A stretch of 64,000 bases of DNA, taken from NCBI RefSeq assembly GCF_000331225.1, contig NZ_ANFY01000007.1:62001-126000 (forward strand). The letters run 5' to 3'. Both the position numbers and the translations under genes were made by a program. Positions 1 to 8,159 of this stretch are shown in pieces. Position 1 is the first letter of the stretch. Every line of letters begins with the position of its first letter. The notes under the pieces were generated by a model. The model searched no databases. It saw only the letters and a list, made by a program, of their open reading frames with translations, and was not told where the DNA came from. This DNA comes from Sandarakinorhabdus sp. AAP62. Its GTDB lineage: Bacteria; Pseudomonadota; Alphaproteobacteria; Sphingomonadales; Sphingomonadaceae.

Positions 1-219
1 ATCCCGACAGAGATAGTCTGGGGCATGCGTGACCCGATCCTGGCCCGCGCGCTGCCGACGATGAAGGCCATGTACCCCACGGCGCACGTCACCGAAACCC
101 AGGCCGGCCATTTCCTGCAGGAAGAGGTGCCGGTTGAAATTGCCGATGCGATCACGCGTGTGGTCGCGGCCGTGCAGGCGGAACAACCAGCGTTGCGCGC
201 AGCCGCCAAACCGGAATGA
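1..219 (+). CDS. alpha/beta hydrolase, C-terminal part (haloalkane dehalogenase/epoxide hydrolase-like)
   Basis: The gene enters from the left edge and only its last 72 codons are present, read in frame from base 1. The fragment shows WGMRDP, where alpha/beta hydrolases place the acid residue after strand 7, and AGHFLQEE, which holds the catalytic His. The GHFLQEE form is typical of haloalkane dehalogenases and epoxide hydrolases. The nucleophile is outside the window, so the substrate cannot be named. It lies on the same strand as the TetR and Baeyer-Villiger monooxygenase genes. A hydrolase beside a monooxygenase that makes esters would suit a ketone-degradation role, but that is inference. 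Confidence 0.75.
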   Translation: MPTEIVWGMRDPILARALPTMKAMYPTAHVTETQAGHFLQEEVPVEIADAITRVVAAVQAEQPALRAAAKPE

Positions 220-363: not shown

Positions 364-1017
364 ATGATGCCAATGCCTGGCATGACGAGCGGAACCATGG
401 ACGTTTCACACCGAACTGACACCAAGGCCGAACTGCTGCGCTCGGCCGAGCGGCTGATTGCCGAGAAGGGCCTTGGTTCGGTATCGGTGAAGATGATCAC
501 CACCGATGCCGGCGCGCGCAATCCCAGCGCGGTGCATTACCACTTCGGCAGCATCGAGAGCCTGATCGAGGAAGTTTTTGCCAAGCGCTTTCGCGAGATC
601 GAGGCCGAGCGGGCGGTGCGGCTGGAACGGGTCACTCAAAGCGATCCCCAGGCACGGTTGGTGGCGCTGGTCGAAGCGGCGATCGGTCCCTTCATCGAAG
701 CCTGCCTTGAAGACAATGGGCGCGTCTACGCCCGGTTCTGCCTTCAGTTCGTGTCGGATCCGCGGTTCGACTATGCCAAGCTGATTATCAACGCCGGGGC
801 GCAGAGCTTTGTGCGACTGAGCGAGGAGATCATCGCCTGCCTGCCGCACATTCCGCTTGAAACGCTGGAGGCCCGGATGCGGCAGAGCTTCGTGATCGCG
901 TTGGTGCAGGCCGTGAGCTTTGCCCGCGCGGTCGAAGCGGGGACGGCGCCGCCTGTGGACGCCGCGGTCAGGGAGGCGGCCACCTGCCTCGCGGCTTATC
1001 TGAGCGCGCCTGCCTGA
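364..1017 (+). CDS. TetR/AcrR-family transcriptional regulator
   Basis: This is a one-domain repressor of about 217 residues. The N-terminal helix-turn-helix reads TKAELLRSAERLIAEKGLGS followed by a second helix and VHYHFGSIESLIEEVF, the usual TetR DNA-binding block; the rest is a helical ligand-binding domain. I chose the ATG at 364 because GGGAGG at 346-351 lies 12 bases upstream; ATGs at 352, 367, 373, 382 and 397 are alternatives, and 397 would also leave the DNA-binding domain whole. The gene lies just upstream of the monooxygenase on the same strand. It is the obvious candidate to bind the palindrome at 1050-1064, but no copy of that palindrome precedes its own start, so autoregulation is not evident. 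Confidence 0.88.
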   Translation: MMPMPGMTSGTMDVSHRTDTKAELLRSAERLIAEKGLGSVSVKMITTDAGARNPSAVHYHFGSIESLIEEVFAKRFREIEAERAVRLERVTQSDPQARLVALVEAAIGPFIEACLEDNGRVYARFCLQFVSDPRFDYAKLIINAGAQSFVRLSEEIIACLPHIPLETLEARMRQSFVIALVQAVSFARAVEAGTAPPVDAAVREAATCLAAYLSAPA

Positions 1018-1040: not shown

Positions 1041-1068
1041 TTGACAGAATAATGTAATGCATTAAATT
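1041..1068 (+). promoter_or_regulatory. promoter of the monooxygenase gene with embedded palindrome TAATGTAATGCATTA
   Basis: A consensus -35 box TTGACA lies at 1041-1046 and a -10-like TAAATT at 1063-1068, with a 16-bp spacer. The 15-bp palindrome (arms TAATG/CATTA) fills 1050-1064, so a bound repressor would cover the spacer and touch the -10 box. Related palindromes occur at 3737-3751 and, on the other strand, at 4737-4751. Confidence 0.7.
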
Positions 1069-1106
1069 CCTCGCATTGCAGCGCACCAGCCGCGTGAGGG
1101 GATTGC

Positions 1107-2969
1107 ATGATGACGACAGTGCTCGACAGGGCTGACATCAAGGCAAAATACGCCGCCGAGCGCGCCAAGCGGCTGCGCCCCGAAGGGAATGATCAATATC
1201 AGCGGCTTTCGGGCAAGTTCGCCGCCCTCGCCGCCGATCCTTATACCCCGTTCATCGAACGCGCGCCGGTTGCCGACCATGTCACCTTTGCCTTCGTCGG
1301 GGCCGGCATGTCCGGGCTGGTGGTCGGCGCGCGGCTCAAGGAAGCGGGGATCGACAGCTTTCGCCTGATCGACAAGGCCGGCGGCGTCGGCGGCACCTGG
1401 TACTGGAACCGCTATCCCGGTGCGCGCTGCGACACGGCGGCGATGATCTATCTGCCGCTGCTGGAAGAGACCGGCTATATCCCAAGCGAGAAATATGTCC
1501 GTGGCCCCGAAATCCTCGCCCATTGCGAGCGGATCGCCGCGCACTATGGCCTGTACGACAAGGCCCTGTTTCACACCGAGGTATCGAGCATCGAATGGCA
1601 GGAGGCCACGCGGGTCTGGCGGATCACCACCAACCGCGGCGACGATTTCACCGCCAAATATGTCGCGATCGGTACCGGGCCGCTGCACGTCGCCAAGCTG
1701 CCAGGGATAGCGGGGATCGAGACTTTCAAGGGCAAGTCGTTCCACACCAGCCGCTGGGACTATGATTATACCGGCGGCGATGCGAACGGCGCGCCGATGG
1801 ACAGGCTTGCCGACAAGCGGGTCGCGGTGATCGGTACCGGAGCAACCGGCGTGCAGTGCATCCCGCAACTGGCCAGGACGGCCAAGCAGCTTTTCGTCTT
1901 CCAGCGCACGCCGTCGTCCGTTGATGTGCGAGGCAACCACCCGATCGATCCGCAATGGTTCGACAGCATTGCAAGACCGGGCTGGCAGAAACGCTGGATG
2001 GACAATTTCGTCGAGAACATGGGAGGCGGCATCCCGTCCGAAGATCTGATCAACGACGGCTGGACTGAAATCTCGCGCCGTATTCGGGAAAAGGCCCTGG
2101 GCAGCACGCCGGCCTGGCTGGCAAAGGCCGGGATGCGCGCACGCGAGGCTTTCAATCGTCCGCCAATTCAAATGGGAACGGACCGGGTGCGGGCGGCGTT
2201 CGAGGAGGCGGATATCGAGAAGATGGAGGAAATCCGCGCCCGGATTGCAACCGTGGTCCAGGATCCGCACACCGCAGAGCAGCTCAAGCCCTGGTATTCG
2301 CAGCTCTGCAAGCGGCCGTGCTTCAGCGATGAGTATCTTCCCGCCTATAACGCGCCCAACACCATTCTGGTCGATACCGACGGCAAGGGGGTCGAGCAGA
2401 TCACCGAAACCGGCCTTGTCGTGGGCGGCAAGCTCTATGAGGTCGATTGCATCATCTACGCCTCGGGCTTCGAATATGGCGCCAATTTCCAGCTGAAGAC
2501 GGGCTTCGACCTCAAGGGCCGTGGCGGCCAGATGCTCTCCGAATATTGGGCGGATGGCCTGCAGACCCTGCACGGGCTGCACATGCACGGTTTCCCCAAC
2601 GCCTTTGCCGTGCAGATGAACCAGGGCGCCAACATGGTCTCGAACATTCCGCACAACATCGTCGATCATGCCGCCACCATCGCCCAGGTGGTCGCCCATG
2701 CCGAGCGCGGGGGGTTCGCCGAAATCGAGCCCACCCAGGCGGCGGTATCGGACTGGGTGCAACTGATCCTGACGGCACCGCCGTCCATGATCACCTCATC
2801 AGACTGCACCCCCGGCTTCTGGAATAATGAAGGCCAGGGCTGGAACGAGAAGTTCCGCCGTTCGCAAGGCCACCCGGGCGGCGCCGGGGGCTTTTTCCGG
2901 CATATCGAGGCGTGGCGCGAGTCGGGGCGCAGGTCTGGGGACTTTGCCGGGCTGGTTTTCAGCAAGTGA
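1107..2969 (+). CDS. flavin-containing Baeyer-Villiger-type monooxygenase
   Basis: The product is a 620-residue FAD- and NADPH-dependent monooxygenase expected to insert oxygen beside a ketone carbonyl. An FAD-binding GAGMSG lies at residues 65-70, the BVMO-typical GGTWYWNRYPGARCD at about 95-109, and the type I BVMO fingerprint FxGxxxHxxxW at 207-217 (F207, H213, W217). The second Rossmann motif GTGATG is at 243-248. The roughly 60-residue extension before the first Rossmann motif resembles the phenylacetone/steroid monooxygenase branch. The start is supported by GAGGGG a few bases upstream; a second ATG follows directly. The substrate is not readable from sequence. Downstream comes a GST-kappa-like gene, and upstream a TetR gene that probably controls it. 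Confidence 0.9.
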   Translation: MMTTVLDRADIKAKYAAERAKRLRPEGNDQYQRLSGKFAALAADPYTPFIERAPVADHVTFAFVGAGMSGLVVGARLKEAGIDSFRLIDKAGGVGGTWYWNRYPGARCDTAAMIYLPLLEETGYIPSEKYVRGPEILAHCERIAAHYGLYDKALFHTEVSSIEWQEATRVWRITTNRGDDFTAKYVAIGTGPLHVAKLPGIAGIETFKGKSFHTSRWDYDYTGGDANGAPMDRLADKRVAVIGTGATGVQCIPQLARTAKQLFVFQRTPSSVDVRGNHPIDPQWFDSIARPGWQKRWMDNFVENMGGGIPSEDLINDGWTEISRRIREKALGSTPAWLAKAGMRAREAFNRPPIQMGTDRVRAAFEEADIEKMEEIRARIATVVQDPHTAEQLKPWYSQLCKRPCFSDEYLPAYNAPNTILVDTDGKGVEQITETGLVVGGKLYEVDCIIYASGFEYGANFQLKTGFDLKGRGGQMLSEYWADGLQTLHGLHMHGFPNAFAVQMNQGANMVSNIPHNIVDHAATIAQVVAHAERGGFAEIEPTQAAVSDWVQLILTAPPSMITSSDCTPGFWNNEGQGWNEKFRRSQGHPGGAGGFFRHIEAWRESGRRSGDFAGLVFSK

Positions 2970-3042
2970 CAGATACGGCGGGGAAGGCGCCTTCCGGCCC
3001 CGCGCGTGAGATCAGGTCGGGATTGCGAGAGGGAAAAAGGCC

Positions 3043-3696
3043 GTGACCGAAATCGTTGATGTGTACTGGTCGTTCCGCAGCCCCTACTCGCGGCTGGTGA
3101 CGGCTGACCTGCTGCAACTGCGGGACGAATTCGATGTCGATGTGCAACTGCGGGTCGTACTGCCGCTGGCGGTCCGCAACCCGAAGGCGCTGTTTGATCC
3201 GAGCAACCGCAAGCCCCCCCGCTATATCATGATGGACAGCATCCGCCGCGGCGAGATGCTTGGTCGCCCGATTGTCCTGCCGGCCGATCCGGACCCGATC
3301 GTGCAGGATTTCCAGACAATGACCATCTCCAGCGAGCAGCCCCATATCTACCGCCTGTCCAAGCTCGGCGTGGAGGCCAACCGCCATGGCCGCGGCGTGG
3401 AACTGGCCGACCAGGTGGCCGCCCTGATCTTTGGCGGTACCAGGGGGTGGGACAAGGGCGATCTGCTCGGGCAAGCCGTGGCCCGGGCCGGGCTGGACCT
3501 GGCACTGCTCGACGCTGCCATCGCAAGCGGCGATCACATGGAAGAGATCGAACGCAATCAGCAGGCGCTCGACGCTGCCGGCCACTGGGGTGTGCCGACC
3601 ATGGTGTTTCGCGGTGAGCCCTTCTTCGGCCAGGACCGGATCGAGACGCTGCGCTGGCGTCTCACCCGCGCCGGGCTTCCCAGGAGCAAATCATGA
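3043..3696 (+). CDS. DsbA-family protein, 2-hydroxychromene-2-carboxylate isomerase-like
   Basis: This is a 217-residue thioredoxin-fold protein of the GST-kappa/HCCA-isomerase group. The start region YWSFRSPYSRL matches the family's SPYS motif; Ser13 aligns with the catalytic Ser, and there is no CxxC, so it is not a disulfide oxidase. The C-terminal GVPTMVFRGEPFFGQDR is the cis-Pro substrate and glutathione-binding region. The start is a GTG preceded by GAGAGGG. HCCA isomerases act in aromatic-ring degradation with glutathione, but related proteins accompany other catabolic genes. It lies 73 bases after the monooxygenase stop and is probably co-transcribed with it. Confidence 0.8.
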   Translation: MTEIVDVYWSFRSPYSRLVTADLLQLRDEFDVDVQLRVVLPLAVRNPKALFDPSNRKPPRYIMMDSIRRGEMLGRPIVLPADPDPIVQDFQTMTISSEQPHIYRLSKLGVEANRHGRGVELADQVAALIFGGTRGWDKGDLLGQAVARAGLDLALLDAAIASGDHMEEIERNQQALDAAGHWGVPTMVFRGEPFFGQDRIETLRWRLTRAGLPRSKS

Positions 3697-3736
3697 CGCC
3701 GCGGACACAGCCGCTGGCCGGCCGTACGGCTGAGGT

Positions 3737-3755
3737 TAATGTAGTGCATTATATC
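3737..3755 (+). promoter_or_regulatory. palindrome TAATGTAGTGCATTA with overlapping -10-like box
   Basis: The palindrome occupies 3737-3751 and a -10-like TATATC begins at 3750, the same geometry as at 1050-1068. No good -35 box is visible at the matching distance. The site lies about 90 bases before the EF-hand gene at 3845 and is the only clear regulatory element in that gap. Confidence 0.55.
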
Positions 3756-3844
3756 AGGAAGGGGCGCTGCTGATCGGGCTTTGGAGAGATGTGATCCCGC
3801 AGCTGCGCCGACGTTTGTTCCCTCAACCCTGTGGAGATTACGCG

Positions 3845-4117
3845 ATGAAGACGATTGCCAGGATGGCGGTATTTGCCGCAGCCGCGATGTTGTTCGTTCC
3901 GCCCGCTTCTGCCGACGCCTATCAGGATCGTCTGAGCGAACTGCGGACCCGGTTCAAGGCATCTGATCGAAACAAGGACGGCAAGTTGACGCGGCAGGAA
4001 GCCAGGGATGGCGGCATGGTCCGCATCGCCGACAATTTCAGCGTCATCGATGCCGACAAGGATGGCGTCGTCACCTTGGCGCAGATCGAGGCCCAGATGG
4101 CCGCGCGGTTCAGATAA
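3845..4117 (+). CDS. small secreted EF-hand protein
   Basis: A 90-residue protein begins with a signal peptide (MKTIARMAVFAAAAMLF, predicted cleavage after ASA near residue 24). Two calcium-binding EF-hand loops follow: DRNKDGKLTRQE, a full consensus, and DADKDGVVTLAQ, whose twelfth position is Gln instead of Glu, which may weaken binding. I chose the ATG at 3845 because GTGGAG lies about 9 bases upstream and it gives a proper signal peptide; an in-frame ATG at 3791 would bury the signal. The gene converges on a second EF-hand gene. Both have the shared palindrome upstream, so they may be expressed together with the monooxygenase. The function is unknown. Confidence 0.82.
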   Translation: MKTIARMAVFAAAAMLFVPPASADAYQDRLSELRTRFKASDRNKDGKLTRQEARDGGMVRIADNFSVIDADKDGVVTLAQIEAQMAARFR

Positions 4118-4246
4118 GCCCATTGTCGCGGAGCGTGCCGCCCTGACGGATCAGCGCGCTCCGCACCATGGCGTGGTGATTGCCGGGCAAGCACGCGCCC
4201 GCAGTTCCGGGGAGTCTCAGCCTGGCCTCGCTCCGGCGGTTCCGGA

Positions 4247-4672
4247 TTAGCGTGCTGTCGGAAGCTCCGACCGCGCGACCATGCCATCGTCATTCCTGTC
4301 GAGCATGCCAAACACATCGGGATCGGTCTTGTTCCATTCATCCAGGGTAACACGCCCGTCATCGTTGCGATCAAAGATCGACGTGACCCGCTCGAAGGCC
4401 GGATCAAACTTGCGTCGCGCGATCGGTATGCGCGGCCTGTCGCCCTCGCTGATGACACCGTCCGAATTGCGATCAAGCCGTGCGAACATCTGTGCCCGAT
4501 GCTGGTTGAACTCGGCTCGAGACGTCTTGCCGTCACCGTTCAGATCGGCTTCGGTCATCATCTCGGCAATTCTCCCTAGCGTCTTCGGGCTTGGCTGCGC
4601 TAGAACGGTGGCTGTGCCCATGGCAGACAGGATGAGCCCAAGCACACTCAAGACGGCAAATCGCCTTTTCAT
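4247..4672 (-). CDS. secreted four-EF-hand protein
   Basis: A 141-residue exported protein starts with a signal peptide (MKRRFAVLSVLGLILSAMG, ending near VLAQ). It then has four EF-hand-like loops: DLNGDGKTSRAE, DRNSDGVISEGD, DRNDDGRVTLDE and DRNDDGMVARSE. The start at 4672 is supported by GAGAGG 6 bases upstream; a much longer in-frame reading back to 5200 passes through the promoter palindrome and is not credible. It is convergent with the other EF-hand gene, 129 bases away. It is likely a periplasmic calcium-binding protein of unknown partner. Confidence 0.85.
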   Translation of the reverse strand: MKRRFAVLSVLGLILSAMGTATVLAQPSPKTLGRIAEMMTEADLNGDGKTSRAEFNQHRAQMFARLDRNSDGVISEGDRPRIPIARRKFDPAFERVTSIFDRNDDGRVTLDEWNKTDPDVFGMLDRNDDGMVARSELPTAR

Positions 4673-4736
4673 TTCAGACCTCTCAATCTTCGTCGCCAGT
4701 AGGCACGCTGCAACAGGAGTGGGGCGCGCGCATGTG

Positions 4737-4751
4737 TAATGCGTTACATTA
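4737..4751 (-). promoter_or_regulatory. palindrome TAATGTAACGCATTA upstream of the four-EF-hand gene
   Basis: On the minus strand the palindrome ends in TA, which begins a -10-like TACACA, the same arrangement as at the other two sites. No consensus -35 is visible. It lies 64 bases upstream of the start codon at 4672. Confidence 0.55.
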
Positions 4752-5433: not shown

Positions 5434-6144
5434 TCACAGCCAGAATCGCACACCCGTTCGCACCGACCAGCCGCCGGGATTTTCGCCGGCAGCGCGCGCC
5501 AGCCGGCTGGATTCGCCGAGGCGCCGTTCGAACATCACCGCCACATAGGGCGCGACACGGCGGGTGACCTCGTAACGGGTCAGCACGCCAGCCTCGATGA
5601 TCGCCGGGCCGGGCGCAATCAGCCGTTCCGGCACGCGGGTCGCATAGATGTCGGTTTCGAACAGCGGCTGCACCACCAGCCGGTTGGTCATGCGCAAATC
5701 GAACGACTGGCGCAGGCGGAACAGCACGTCACCCTTGAAGCCGAAAAAGGCGTGCGCCTCGGTTTCGAAGAACAGGGGCGCCAGGCCTTGCACGCCGACG
5801 ACGGCATAGGTGCGGGCATCAGGCTGGTTGTCATGGCGCAGGCCAACCTGGGCATCGAAGAACATGGCGATGTTGCGGCTGTAGAGCGCCTGGAACTCGC
5901 TCTGCTCCAGCCGTGGCCCCTTGGTCTCGCCCTCGGTGCGCCACCAGAACTTGTTCATGTCGCTGCCGATCCAGCCCTGCACCTCCCAGTTGGCGACGAG
6001 CTTGCCGTCAAAGCGGGTGATGTCGGCCTCTTCGACGAGCGTGTAGTTGTTGATGCCGCCATCGTGGCCATGGGCAGGATCGGGGGCCTTCTGGGCCGCA
6101 GCGGGCGCGGCCAGCAGCGCCGCCGTGATGAGAAGCGCGCGCAT
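5434..6144 (-). CDS. copB: copper resistance protein B (outer-membrane)
   Basis: A 236-residue CopB-family protein, in outline a signal peptide (MRALLITAALLAAPAAAQ) followed by an outer-membrane beta-barrel. The family core is clear: LVANWEVQGWIGSDMNKFWWRTEGE, then YSRNIAMFFDAQVGLRHD and GENPGGWSVRTGVRFWL with the terminal Phe/Trp-Leu signature of barrel proteins. The Met/His-rich N-terminal tract found in many CopB proteins is almost absent; in this operon a comparable array sits in CopA. The start at 6144 overlaps the copA stop by one base (TGATG), so the two are translationally coupled. CopB is thought to limit copper entry or sequester copper at the outer membrane. Confidence 0.9.
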   Translation of the reverse strand: MRALLITAALLAAPAAAQKAPDPAHGHDGGINNYTLVEEADITRFDGKLVANWEVQGWIGSDMNKFWWRTEGETKGPRLEQSEFQALYSRNIAMFFDAQVGLRHDNQPDARTYAVVGVQGLAPLFFETEAHAFFGFKGDVLFRLRQSFDLRMTNRLVVQPLFETDIYATRVPERLIAPGPAIIEAGVLTRYEVTRRVAPYVAVMFERRLGESSRLARAAGENPGGWSVRTGVRFWL

Positions 6145-8159
6145 CAGTGGTGATGCACGGCTGCAGGCGTGCCATCCGGCGACGCCACATTGGCGACCAC
6201 CAGCTTCTGCATCATGCCGCTGTTCATGTGATAGAGCAGGTGGCAGTGCAGCGGCCATTCGCCGGCTTCGTTGGCGGTGAGGATGATCGACTGGGTACGG
6301 CCCGGCGCCACCACGATCACGTTCTTTTCCGGCATCAGGCCGGCCGCCTGGCCGTTCTCCACCTCGAAGAACATGCCGTGCAGGTGCATCGGGTGGGCCA
6401 TCATCGTTTCATTGACGAAGGTGACGCGCACGCGCTCGCCAAATTTCACGTCGATGGGCGGGCCTTCGCCGAACTTCTTGCCATTCAGCGTCCAGATGTA
6501 ACGCTCCATATTGCCCTGCAGCCGCACGACGATCTCGCGCGTGGGGGCGGCGGCGTCGGCCTTCGGTTCCAGCGCCACCAGGTCGCGCATGGACAGTACA
6601 CGGCTGCCGTAAGGCGCACCGGTGGCCCAGCCGAAGACGCGGCCGCTACCATCGGTGTCGCCTTCCTTGCCCAGCACCGGCATGTGCATCATGCCCTGCA
6701 TCTTGCTGTGATCCATGCCCGCCATCGGGTCCTTGCCATAGCCATAGTCCACCACCGGGAAGGGCGTGCCGCCGGCCGGCTTCTCGGCCAGCGCCACTGC
6801 GCTGCCGGCACGCGGGCCGGCAGCCTTGGGTGTGCAGTGGCCCATCGCGGCGTGCTCGGGAGGGCAATCCGGATCAGCGGCCGCTGCAACGGCCGGCGCC
6901 TTGGGTGTGCAATGGCCCATCGCGGCATGTTCGGGCGGGCAATCCGGGTCAGCCGGCGCAGCAGCCGGCGCTTTGGGCGTGCAATGGCCCATGGCGGCAT
7001 GTTCGGGCGGGCAATCGGGGTCGCCCGCCACTGCGGCAACCGAGGTCGCGCCGGCCGGCGTGCAATGGCCCATGGCGGCATGTTCGGGCGCGCAGGGCTC
7101 GCCAGCCGCTGGCATCGAATGACCCATTTCGGCCAGCAGCAGCACCTGCTTCGGGCGCGGCGCCGGCGCGGCCACGGTCAGCGCCGGGTCGCTGGTCAGC
7201 CGGCCGAGCACGCTGGCACGGCGATCAAGCGATTCCACCCACAATGCGTGGGCACCGGCCGGCGGCTCCACGATCACGTCATAGGTTTCGGCGACGCCCA
7301 TGCGGAATTCATCCACCGTCACCGGCTGCACCGGGCGGCCATCGGCGGCAACGATGGTCATCGGCACGCCGGGTATGCGGATGTCCATGAAGCTCATGGC
7401 GCTGCCGTTGATGAAGCGCAGCCGGACGCGCTGGCCCGGCTGGAAGGCCAGGGTCGGCCCCGCGGCCGTCGGCTTGCCGTGCATCAAGAGCGCATAGCCG
7501 GTCACATCGGCGATGTCGGTCGCGTCCATGCGCATATCGCCCCAGGCCGCGCGTTCAGCCATCGTCGCCTTCATCCCGAACTTCTTCGCGTCGCGCACCA
7601 GTTCCGGCAGCGTGCGCTTGTTCCAGTTGTAATAGCCGCTGTCGCTCTTCAGATTCCTGAGGATGCGGCCCGGATCCTCGCGCGTGTGGTCAGAGAGCAG
7701 GATGACATGCTCGGCATCCGCCTTGATCGGATCCTCGCCCTTCGGCGCGATGATCAGCGCGCCATATTGGCCGGCCTGTTCATGGCCCTCGCTGTGGGCG
7801 TGATACCAATAGGTGCCGCTCTGCCGGATGCGGATGCGATAGGTGTAGGTGGTACCTGGCGCGATGCCATTGAAGCCATTGAAGCCCGGCGCGCCATCAT
7901 AGGCGCCATCGACCAGCAGGCCGTGCCAATGGATGGAGGTGCTGGCGCCCAGCTTGTTGGTGACTCGCACCACCGCCTCTTCGCCTTCCGTGAAGCGCAG
8001 GGTGGGGCCGGGCACGCTGCCATTGATGGCAATCACACTGTCGCTGCGGCCGGGCACGACCTGTTTCTGCTGGCGTTCCACCACCAGATCATAGGTGGCG
8101 GCCTGCGCCAGGGACGGCAGCAGCAGGCCGAGGATCAGGAAGAACAAGCGCATCATCAT
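6144..8159 (-). CDS. copA: copper-resistance multicopper oxidase CopA
   Basis: A 671-residue periplasmic multicopper oxidase expected to oxidise Cu(I) to Cu(II). Copper-ligand motifs are intact: SIHWHG near residue 76, YWYHAHSEGHEQ near 118, HPMHLHGMFFEVENG, and HCHLLYHMNSGMM, which holds the type 1 copper Cys, His and Met. Two oddities stand out. The signal peptide (MMMRLFFLILGLLLPSLAQA) has no twin arginine, although CopA proteins usually travel by Tat. Also, residues about 354-447 hold four copies of a PEHAAMGHCTP-type unit, each with two Cys, two His and one Met, placed between the cupredoxin domains and followed by MDHSKMQGMMHM. The gene overlaps the upstream stop by one base (TGATG). 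Confidence 0.95.
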   Translation of the reverse strand: MMMRLFFLILGLLLPSLAQAATYDLVVERQQKQVVPGRSDSVIAINGSVPGPTLRFTEGEEAVVRVTNKLGASTSIHWHGLLVDGAYDGAPGFNGFNGIAPGTTYTYRIRIRQSGTYWYHAHSEGHEQAGQYGALIIAPKGEDPIKADAEHVILLSDHTREDPGRILRNLKSDSGYYNWNKRTLPELVRDAKKFGMKATMAERAAWGDMRMDATDIADVTGYALLMHGKPTAAGPTLAFQPGQRVRLRFINGSAMSFMDIRIPGVPMTIVAADGRPVQPVTVDEFRMGVAETYDVIVEPPAGAHALWVESLDRRASVLGRLTSDPALTVAAPAPRPKQVLLLAEMGHSMPAAGEPCAPEHAAMGHCTPAGATSVAAVAGDPDCPPEHAAMGHCTPKAPAAAPADPDCPPEHAAMGHCTPKAPAVAAAADPDCPPEHAAMGHCTPKAAGPRAGSAVALAEKPAGGTPFPVVDYGYGKDPMAGMDHSKMQGMMHMPVLGKEGDTDGSGRVFGWATGAPYGSRVLSMRDLVALEPKADAAAPTREIVVRLQGNMERYIWTLNGKKFGEGPPIDVKFGERVRVTFVNETMMAHPMHLHGMFFEVENGQAAGLMPEKNVIVVAPGRTQSIILTANEAGEWPLHCHLLYHMNSGMMQKLVVANVASPDGTPAAVHHH
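6828..7105 (-). repeat. four tandem repeats coding Cys/His/Met copper-binding units in copA
   Basis: Four near-identical DNA units of about 45 bases recur at intervals of 69-87 bases and encode (P)DCPPEHAAMGHCTP, the first-translated copy reading EPCAPEHAAMGHCTP. Linkers are Ala/Pro-rich and differ in length. The conservation at DNA level indicates recent duplication. Confidence 0.9.

What the first reader, a model, noticed from the sequence alone, without database searches (positions are those of the whole stretch)
1041..4751. Three copies of a 15-bp palindrome define a small regulon of a monooxygenase and two EF-hand proteins
TAATGTAATGCATTA (1050-1064), TAATGTAGTGCATTA (3737-3751) and, on the minus strand, TAATGTAACGCATTA (4737-4751) share arms TAATG/CATTA around TARYG. 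In all three, the last two bases of the palindrome start a -10-like hexamer (TAAATT, TATATC, TACACA). Each lies upstream of a different gene: the Baeyer-Villiger monooxygenase and two secreted EF-hand proteins. The TetR gene at 364 is the natural binder. A regulon that pairs a ketone monooxygenase with periplasmic calcium-binding proteins has no description I know of.
Basis: partly seen in the sequence, partly recalled or inferred. Interest (0 to 1): 0.72.

Follow-up and report, generated by a model that had tools for sequence, protein, structure and literature searches.

The report
TetR operator regulon for sulfatase-monooxygenase cluster
A short mirror-image DNA sequence repeated in front of neighbouring genes is very probably the binding site of the regulator encoded in the same cluster, which appears to control a rare set of genes for breaking down a still unknown, probably sulfated compound, with two calcium-binding proteins included.

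Summary
TAATGN5CATTA occurs five times in the 3.13-Mb genome, all within 6.2 kb; two copies lie just left of the window. About 0.2 are expected. Own and six loci with TetR orthologues (67-88% identical) carry it before the monooxygenase in 6 of 6 loci holding that gene, EF-hand 1 in 5 of 5, EF-hand 2 in 4 of 4, and the hydrolase in 5 of 5. 21 of 22 exact copies in the six relatives' genomes lie in the cluster. Degenerate copies precede a metallo-hydrolase gene, both sulfatase genes and tetR. The palindrome also accompanies distant TetR homologues in another family (17 of 20 loci), but not BVMO paralogues (0 of 29) or five homologues of the own family. The TetR's DNA-binding domain is 98-100% conserved, its C-terminus 58-88%. 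Best account: a local TetR repressor, PsrA-like in fold but with another operator. Binding, ligand and substrate are untested. tetR starts at 397, not 364; the shared -10 claim holds only in part. I found no published description.

The parts
1..219 (+). 3' end of the alpha/beta-hydrolase gene (Asp-nucleophile type, haloalkane-dehalogenase/epoxide-hydrolase-like); gene starts at C7:61152, left of the window, behind an exact palindrome at C7:61091-61105
371..385 (+). degenerate operator copy CAATGCCTGGCATGA upstream of tetR, at the place where relatives L011, L012 and L013 have exact copies
397..1017 (+). tetR: TetR-family regulator, 206 aa, PsrA-like fold (Pfam TetR_N + TetR_C_30)
1041..1046 (+). 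TTGACA, -35-like box of the monooxygenase promoter, invariant in 6 of 6 loci
1050..1064 (+). operator TAATGTAATGCATTA, lying in the 16-bp spacer and touching the -10 of the monooxygenase promoter
1107..2969 (+). type I Baeyer-Villiger monooxygenase (fingerprint FKGKSFHTSRWD)
3043..3696 (+). DsbA-fold protein with SPYS instead of CxxC (2-hydroxychromene-2-carboxylate-isomerase-like is my inference), probably co-transcribed with the monooxygenase (inferred from the gap)
3737..3751 (+). operator TAATGTAGTGCATTA before EF-hand gene 1
3845..4117 (+). EF-hand protein 1, 90 aa, N-terminal signal-like segment (by inspection), two DxDxDG-type loops
4247..4672 (-). EF-hand protein 2, 141 aa, N-terminal signal-like segment (by inspection), four EF loops
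4737..4751 (-). operator TAATGTAACGCATTA before EF-hand gene 2

Best explanation
TAATGN5CATTA is the operator of the TetR protein encoded at 397-1017. Without its ligand a TetR dimer sits on the sites and blocks RNA polymerase; at the monooxygenase promoter the operator fills the spacer between -35 and -10. A compound derived from the cluster's substrate releases it. It thereby controls a 13-kb island that in this genome holds a metallo-hydrolase, a GST-like protein, a formylglycine-generating enzyme, two formylglycine sulfatases, a DUF4345-like membrane protein, an alpha/beta hydrolase, the monooxygenase with a DsbA-fold protein, and two EF-hand proteins. TetR also controls its own gene in relatives through a site before it, which has decayed in this genome. 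Shown: the sites, their confinement to the cluster, their conservation, and their association with the TetR. Inferred: binding, repression, ligand release and the pathway order (desulfation and hydrolysis outside, oxygenation inside).
For: Five of five genomic copies lie in the cluster, and 21 of 22 in six relatives. Site arms are identical before BVMO, EF1, EF2 and hydrolase orthologues, while flanks are 31-55% identical. The HTH is 98-100% identical among six orthologues although the C-terminal part is 58-88%. Exact sites stand 27 nt before tetR in L011, L012 and L013. Homologues of 29-39% identity in family f5 have the exact site in 17 of 20 loci (21 copies; 0.07 expected from the same genomes' background, sizes rounded); 10 of the 17 have it within 200 nt upstream of the assigned tetR start, 8 of those at -54 to -65. 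BVMO-paralogue loci have 0 copies in 29 loci, 137 kb. A leave-one-locus-out PWM ranks nine sites before cluster genes above every other non-overlapping site in 82 kb. The TetR model (pLDDT 90) matches PsrA, 2fbq, best.
Against: No binding or expression data. That tetR accompanies the cluster in L010-L015 is by construction, because tetR was the query that fetched them. Five TetR homologues of the window's own family (31-35% identical) and 3 of 20 in f5 have no exact site within their roughly 3-kb loci. In 7 of the 17 f5 loci the only exact site is 1.3-1.4 kb upstream of tetR, before a promoter I did not identify. Several f5 tetR starts are GTG or TTG picked by script. The f5 sites tend to differ at positions 6 and 10. 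The TetR tree does not join the window clade and the f5 clade with support. L010 and L014 have no recognisable site before tetR. The degenerate sites score far lower (7.4-13.4 against 24.9-28.6), and that before sulfatase A (7.4) is barely above the best non-cluster site (6.0).
Confidence: 0.83

Rival explanations
1. The palindrome is the operator of a different regulator; tetR is a passenger or a target only.
For: No binding data; in the window's genome the site before tetR is degenerate; the TetR tree does not join the two site-bearing clades with support; the loci were fetched with tetR, so its presence in them is no evidence.
Against: The palindrome accompanies homologues of this TetR in a different family beside other genes (17 of 20 loci), but not BVMO paralogues (0 of 29). 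The TetR's DNA-binding half is almost frozen while its other half diverges.
Confidence: 0.1
2. The TetR activates rather than represses, or does both.
For: For EF-hand 1, EF-hand 2 and the hydrolase no good -35 accompanies the site, as would fit activator-dependent promoters.
Against: At the monooxygenase promoter the site fills the spacer between a perfect -35 and the presumed -10 in 6 of 6 loci, where a bound dimer would block polymerase; before tetR the site ends 12 nt from the start codon in L011, L012 and L013.
Confidence: 0.12
3. Chance or a dispersed repeat element: the palindromes are unrelated AT-rich sequence or copies of a mobile repeat.
For: The sites are AT-rich stretches in a 66% GC region; 79 of 297 other family genomes hold at least one copy.
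Against: 0.2 copies expected against 5 found, all in 6.2 kb; arms are conserved across differently named genera while flanks and cores vary, unlike copied repeats. In the control genomes the listed copies are scattered, the closest listed pair about 15 kb apart; that list was cut.
Confidence: 0.01

Closest known systems
PsrA of Pseudomonas (TetR family; PDB 2fbq = PA3006)
   Same: Best structural (TM 0.75, 24% identity) and sequence match of the TetR among solved structures; autorepressing TetR regulator with a palindromic operator in its own promoter (PMC10304680, passages).
   Different: PsrA binds G/CAAAC(N2-4)GTTTG/C and responds to long-chain fatty acids (PMC10304680, passages). That motif is absent from the window's cluster, and the NCBIfam PsrA model scores 47.6 against a cut-off of 300.
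Local TetR repressors of catabolic gene clusters, such as NicR2 of nicotine degradation (named in the fold listing; the comparison is recalled)
   Same: Regulator inside the cluster, several promoters with one short palindrome.
   Different: Fold match weaker than PsrA (NicR2 TM 0.73, 15% identity), different enzymes; operators not compared here.
EfhP, EF-hand calcium sensor of Pseudomonas aeruginosa (PMC11559002, title and start of abstract in the listing)
   Same: Bacterial EF-hand protein tied to a physiological programme.
   Different: Here the EF-hand genes lie in a desulfation and oxidation cluster. Sequence relation not tested.

Membership tests
TetR family transcriptional regulators | N-terminal TetR_N helix-turn-helix above the curated cut-off | tested here: met
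   PF00440 32.5 bits against cut-off 24; TetR_C_30 32.1 against 26.3
TetR family transcriptional regulators | All-helical TetR fold | tested here: met
   model pLDDT 90.1, ten helices, 29 PDB matches with E up to 0.001; the entries whose titles name a family are TetR-family regulators
TetR family transcriptional regulators | Binds a palindromic operator near its own or target promoters | tested here: inconclusive
   conserved palindromes placed and co-occurring as expected; binding itself not testable here
PsrA | Equivalog model score above cut-off | tested here: not met
   NF053516 47.6 bits against 300
PsrA | Operator G/CAAAC(N2-4)GTTTG/C in its promoters | tested here: not met
   3 matches in 82 kb of own contig, all outside C7:53.6-66.8 kb; in L010-L015 one match, L012:15493, about 450 bases beyond the EF-hand 2 site
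Type I Baeyer-Villiger monooxygenases | Fingerprint FxGxxxHxxxW(P/D) between two Rossmann motifs (recalled definition) | tested here: met
   FKGKSFHTSRWD at residue 207, GAGMSG 65, GTGATG 243; best solved relative 5mq6, E 2.6e-128
Formylglycine sulfatases with their generating enzyme | CxPSR...TG in the sulfatases; two active-site cysteines in the FGE (recalled definition) | tested here: met
   CSPSRAMLLTG, CAPSRAMLMTG, CAANYCARYR; PF00884 197 and 199 bits against 25, PF03781 240.5 against 23.3
Haloalkane dehalogenase / epoxide hydrolase type alpha/beta hydrolase | Asp nucleophile in the elbow and HGxP oxyanion motif (recalled definition) | tested here: met
   GQDWG, HGNP; best solved relative haloalkane dehalogenase 5esr, E 2.1e-24. 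Substrate class not testable

The most novel reading that the evidence does not exclude
The two EF-hand proteins are working parts of the desulfation machinery: calcium-loading or calcium-holding partners for the exported, calcium-dependent formylglycine sulfatases and their generating enzyme, co-induced with them by a substrate-sensing TetR. That would be a substrate-induced bacterial calcium-supply module for one pathway.
Probability: 0.15. Interest if true: 0.7.

Novelty: new member of a known kind. Interest (0 to 1): 0.45.

Why it matters
It gives TetR proteins without a described operator (none found) a concrete, testable one that appears in two families of one order, and with it a defined regulon. 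The regulon names the parts of a pathway I found no description of (desulfation, hydrolysis, Baeyer-Villiger oxidation, in two relatives a TonB-dependent receptor and a GPH-type transporter), and it places two EF-hand proteins in a specific metabolic setting, which would make their role testable.

Tried and rejected
Looking for the TetR in the window's own family gave nothing beyond the genome itself at E up to 1e-25 (1 of 298 genomes), so conservation had to be shown with loci from genome contigs (8 loci, of which L016 and L017, 33% identical over about 100 residues, show no site with up to one arm mismatch and were not used as orthologues). Plasmid searches with TetR and the monooxygenase found only relatives under 60% identity (51 and 43 records). 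The TonB-dependent receptor of L011 has no closer relative in the window's genome than 47% identity.

I considered that the site marks the monooxygenase family rather than the TetR, and rejected it: 29 loci with BVMO paralogues of 52-63% identity have no exact copy. I considered a transcription terminator or RNA hairpin and did not test it; the arms are short and AT-rich and the flanks unrelated. Reading the alpha/beta hydrolase as the esterase that opens the Baeyer-Villiger product is doubtful: its nucleophile motif is GQDWG, as in haloalkane dehalogenases, not a serine. PsrA's operator was sought and not found in the cluster.

A first script to extract f5 TetR proteins found none because of a faulty pattern; a tblastn-based script replaced it. 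Two alignment calls failed for wrong coordinates of mine and were corrected.
Full report
WHAT IS THERE. A whole-genome search changes the picture: TAATGN5CATTA occurs five times in 3,131,544 bases, all within C7:60550-66751. The window begins at C7:62001, so two copies lie just left of it: C7:60550, before a small membrane protein gene with a below-cut-off DUF4345 match, and C7:61091, before an alpha/beta hydrolase gene. Composition predicts 0.2 copies per genome, and the reversed control pattern is absent.

CONSERVATION. A scan of genome contigs with the TetR gave six orthologues at 67-88% identity (best segment), in contigs named Erythrobacter, Porphyrobacter and Sphingomonas, plus two weak hits at 33% that I set aside. 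Much of the gene order around them is shared, with differences: L010 and L015 lack sulfatase A between the metallo-hydrolase and sulfatase B genes, and L013 has sulfatase A directly before tetR. Exact palindromes number 3, 6, 6, 1, 1 and 4 in L010-L015. Counting the own genome, they precede the monooxygenase in 6 of 6 loci that hold it, EF-hand 1 in 5 of 5, EF-hand 2 in 4 of 4, and the hydrolase in 5 of 5. L013 ends 1.2 kb after tetR and shows no monooxygenase. In the six relatives' whole genomes 21 of 22 exact copies are in the cluster; the other is in G301, the genome of L013. In the 26 exact sites the arms are fixed by definition; position 6 is T or C in all 26, and position 10 is G or A in 24. 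In site-anchored comparison of orthologous promoters the arms are identical for four genes and 88% for tetR, where the two degenerate copies are included, while 30 bases upstream are 32-55% and 20 bases downstream 31-55% identical. The 100% is partly by construction, since exact sites were selected, but every locus that holds the gene (monooxygenase, hydrolase, EF-hand 1 or 2) has one.

MORE SITES. A position matrix built only from the other loci was run over 82 kb of the window's contig; the 12 best hits were printed. Apart from shifted overlaps of exact sites they are the five exact sites (24.9-28.6), then C7:60451 before sulfatase B (13.4), C7:53655 before the metallo-hydrolase (11.5), window 371 before tetR (9.7) and C7:56782 between the sulfatase A and FGE genes (7.4); the best outside the cluster is 6.0. 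The metallo-hydrolase site recurs with one arm mismatch in L010, L013 and L015, and the site between sulfatase B and DUF4345 with one mismatch in L010 and L015. L011 and L012 have exact sites before a TonB-dependent receptor frame and between tetR and a divergent GPH-type transporter frame; the L011 proteins were identified by family search, those of L012 by their similar translations. So the regulon in this genome has up to nine sites over 13 kb, C7:53.6-66.8 kb.

WHO BINDS. (a) tetR lies in each of the six loci by construction, since it was the query. In 298 family genomes no monooxygenase above 63% identity was found outside the window's own genome, so no cluster without tetR could be compared. 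(b) Exact sites stand 27 nt before the tetR start in L011, L012 and L013; L015 has one with one mismatch and the window one with two (371-385); L010 and L014 have none recognisable. The window's tetR therefore probably starts at 397, not 364. (c) Over 48 residues of the HTH the orthologues are 98-100% identical to the window's TetR, while the C-terminal part is 58-88%: DNA recognition is held while the rest drifts, as the invariant arms would demand. (d) An order-wide search of 396 genomes gave 25 further TetR homologues at about 29-39% identity. In the 20 of family f5 the exact palindrome is present in 17 loci, 21 copies in 68 kb where the same genomes' background predicts 0.07. Ten of the 17 have it within 200 nt upstream of the assigned tetR start, eight of these at -54 to -65; in seven it lies 1.3-1.4 kb upstream. 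Their neighbourhoods, examined in six longer stretches by reading frames only, look different from the window's cluster. The five homologues from the window's own family have none in 17.7 kb. (e) 29 loci around BVMO paralogues, 137 kb, have none. Against this: the f5 sites tend to differ at positions 6 and 10, three f5 loci lack the site, the tree does not join the two site-bearing clades with support, and no binding was measured.

BACKGROUND. In the draw of 298 family genomes, TetR at E up to 1e-25 is found only in the window's own. 79 of the other 297 have one or more exact palindromes; among the places listed the closest pair is about 15 kb apart, but the list was cut.

MECHANISM. At the monooxygenase promoter a perfect TTGACA lies 3 nt before the operator in 6 of 6 loci, so that a -10 with 16-bp spacing would begin at the operator's last two bases. 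A dimer there would exclude polymerase. EF-hand 1 has a fair -10 at the same place in 5 of 5 loci but no good -35. EF-hand 2 has neither, so its promoter is unknown. I infer repression with release by a ligand. The fold model matches PsrA best, and PsrA is an autorepressor that responds to fatty acids (PMC10304680, passages seen). But its operator and its family model are not met here, so this is a PsrA-like regulator, not PsrA.

WHAT THE REGULON DOES. Motifs support working enzymes: Baeyer-Villiger fingerprint, two formylglycine sulfatases, an FGE with both cysteines, a metallo-hydrolase with HxHxDH, and an Asp-nucleophile hydrolase. The monooxygenase's best solved relative is 5mq6, which I recall as a polycyclic ketone monooxygenase. 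By inspection the metallo-hydrolase, FGE, both sulfatases, hydrolase and both EF-hand proteins have a signal- or anchor-like segment near the N-terminus (one search prints the N-termini; no predictor was run). I infer desulfation and hydrolysis of a bulky sulfated compound outside the cytoplasm, uptake, and oxidation of a ketone inside; my confidence in that pathway is about 0.4. Formylglycine sulfatases carry calcium in the active site (recalled), which gives the EF-hand proteins a conceivable role; nothing here tests it. For EF-hand 2, 14 of 298 family genomes (own included) matched at E up to 1e-15, and the best other match is 42% identical, against 62-66% in L011, L012 and L015; this suggests that it travels with the cluster.

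LITERATURE. Searches for TetR with Baeyer-Villiger, EF-hand and regulon (0 papers), for three of Baeyer-Villiger, sulfatase, TetR and sphingomonad (16 papers, 12 listed), for PsrA operators in Sphingomonadales (6), for the exact 15-mer TAATGTAATGCATTA (0), for EF-hand, periplasmic, TetR, operator and sulfatase (14, 10 listed), and for sulfatase, Baeyer-Villiger, Erythrobacter and steroid (1) listed no paper whose title or abstract start describes this cluster. Only PMC10304680 was opened, for passages. The library is open-access only, so absence from it is weak evidence.

VERDICT. A real, conserved operator and a new TetR regulon, larger than described; an ordinary kind of regulation with an unusual gene set.

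Noticed in passing
L015:14884-16149, L013 contig end near 11849: An integrase-like frame lies next to the EF-hand 2 end of the cluster in L015, and a transposase-like start lies at the contig end after tetR in L013 (read from translations and sequence, no family search). With 80-90% protein identity for most cluster enzymes between differently named genera and a very patchy distribution (1 of 298 family genomes), the cluster may be a mobile catabolic island.
   Followed up: no
L074-L079 (family f5): A second, different set of genes around related TetR proteins with TAATGN5CATTA sites: frames that look like an alpha/beta hydrolase, short-chain dehydrogenase, aldehyde dehydrogenase and glutathione-transferase-like proteins (by inspection).
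   Followed up: partly
window 5434-8159: Two frames that look like CopB and CopA copper-resistance genes (minus strand, by inspection) follow the cluster; they have no site among the best matrix hits and gave no match in L010-L015.
   Followed up: partly
G000:C10:108095-111791: Two neighbouring paralogues of the monooxygenase (57% and 62% identical) elsewhere in the same genome; no exact palindrome lies on that contig.
   Followed up: no
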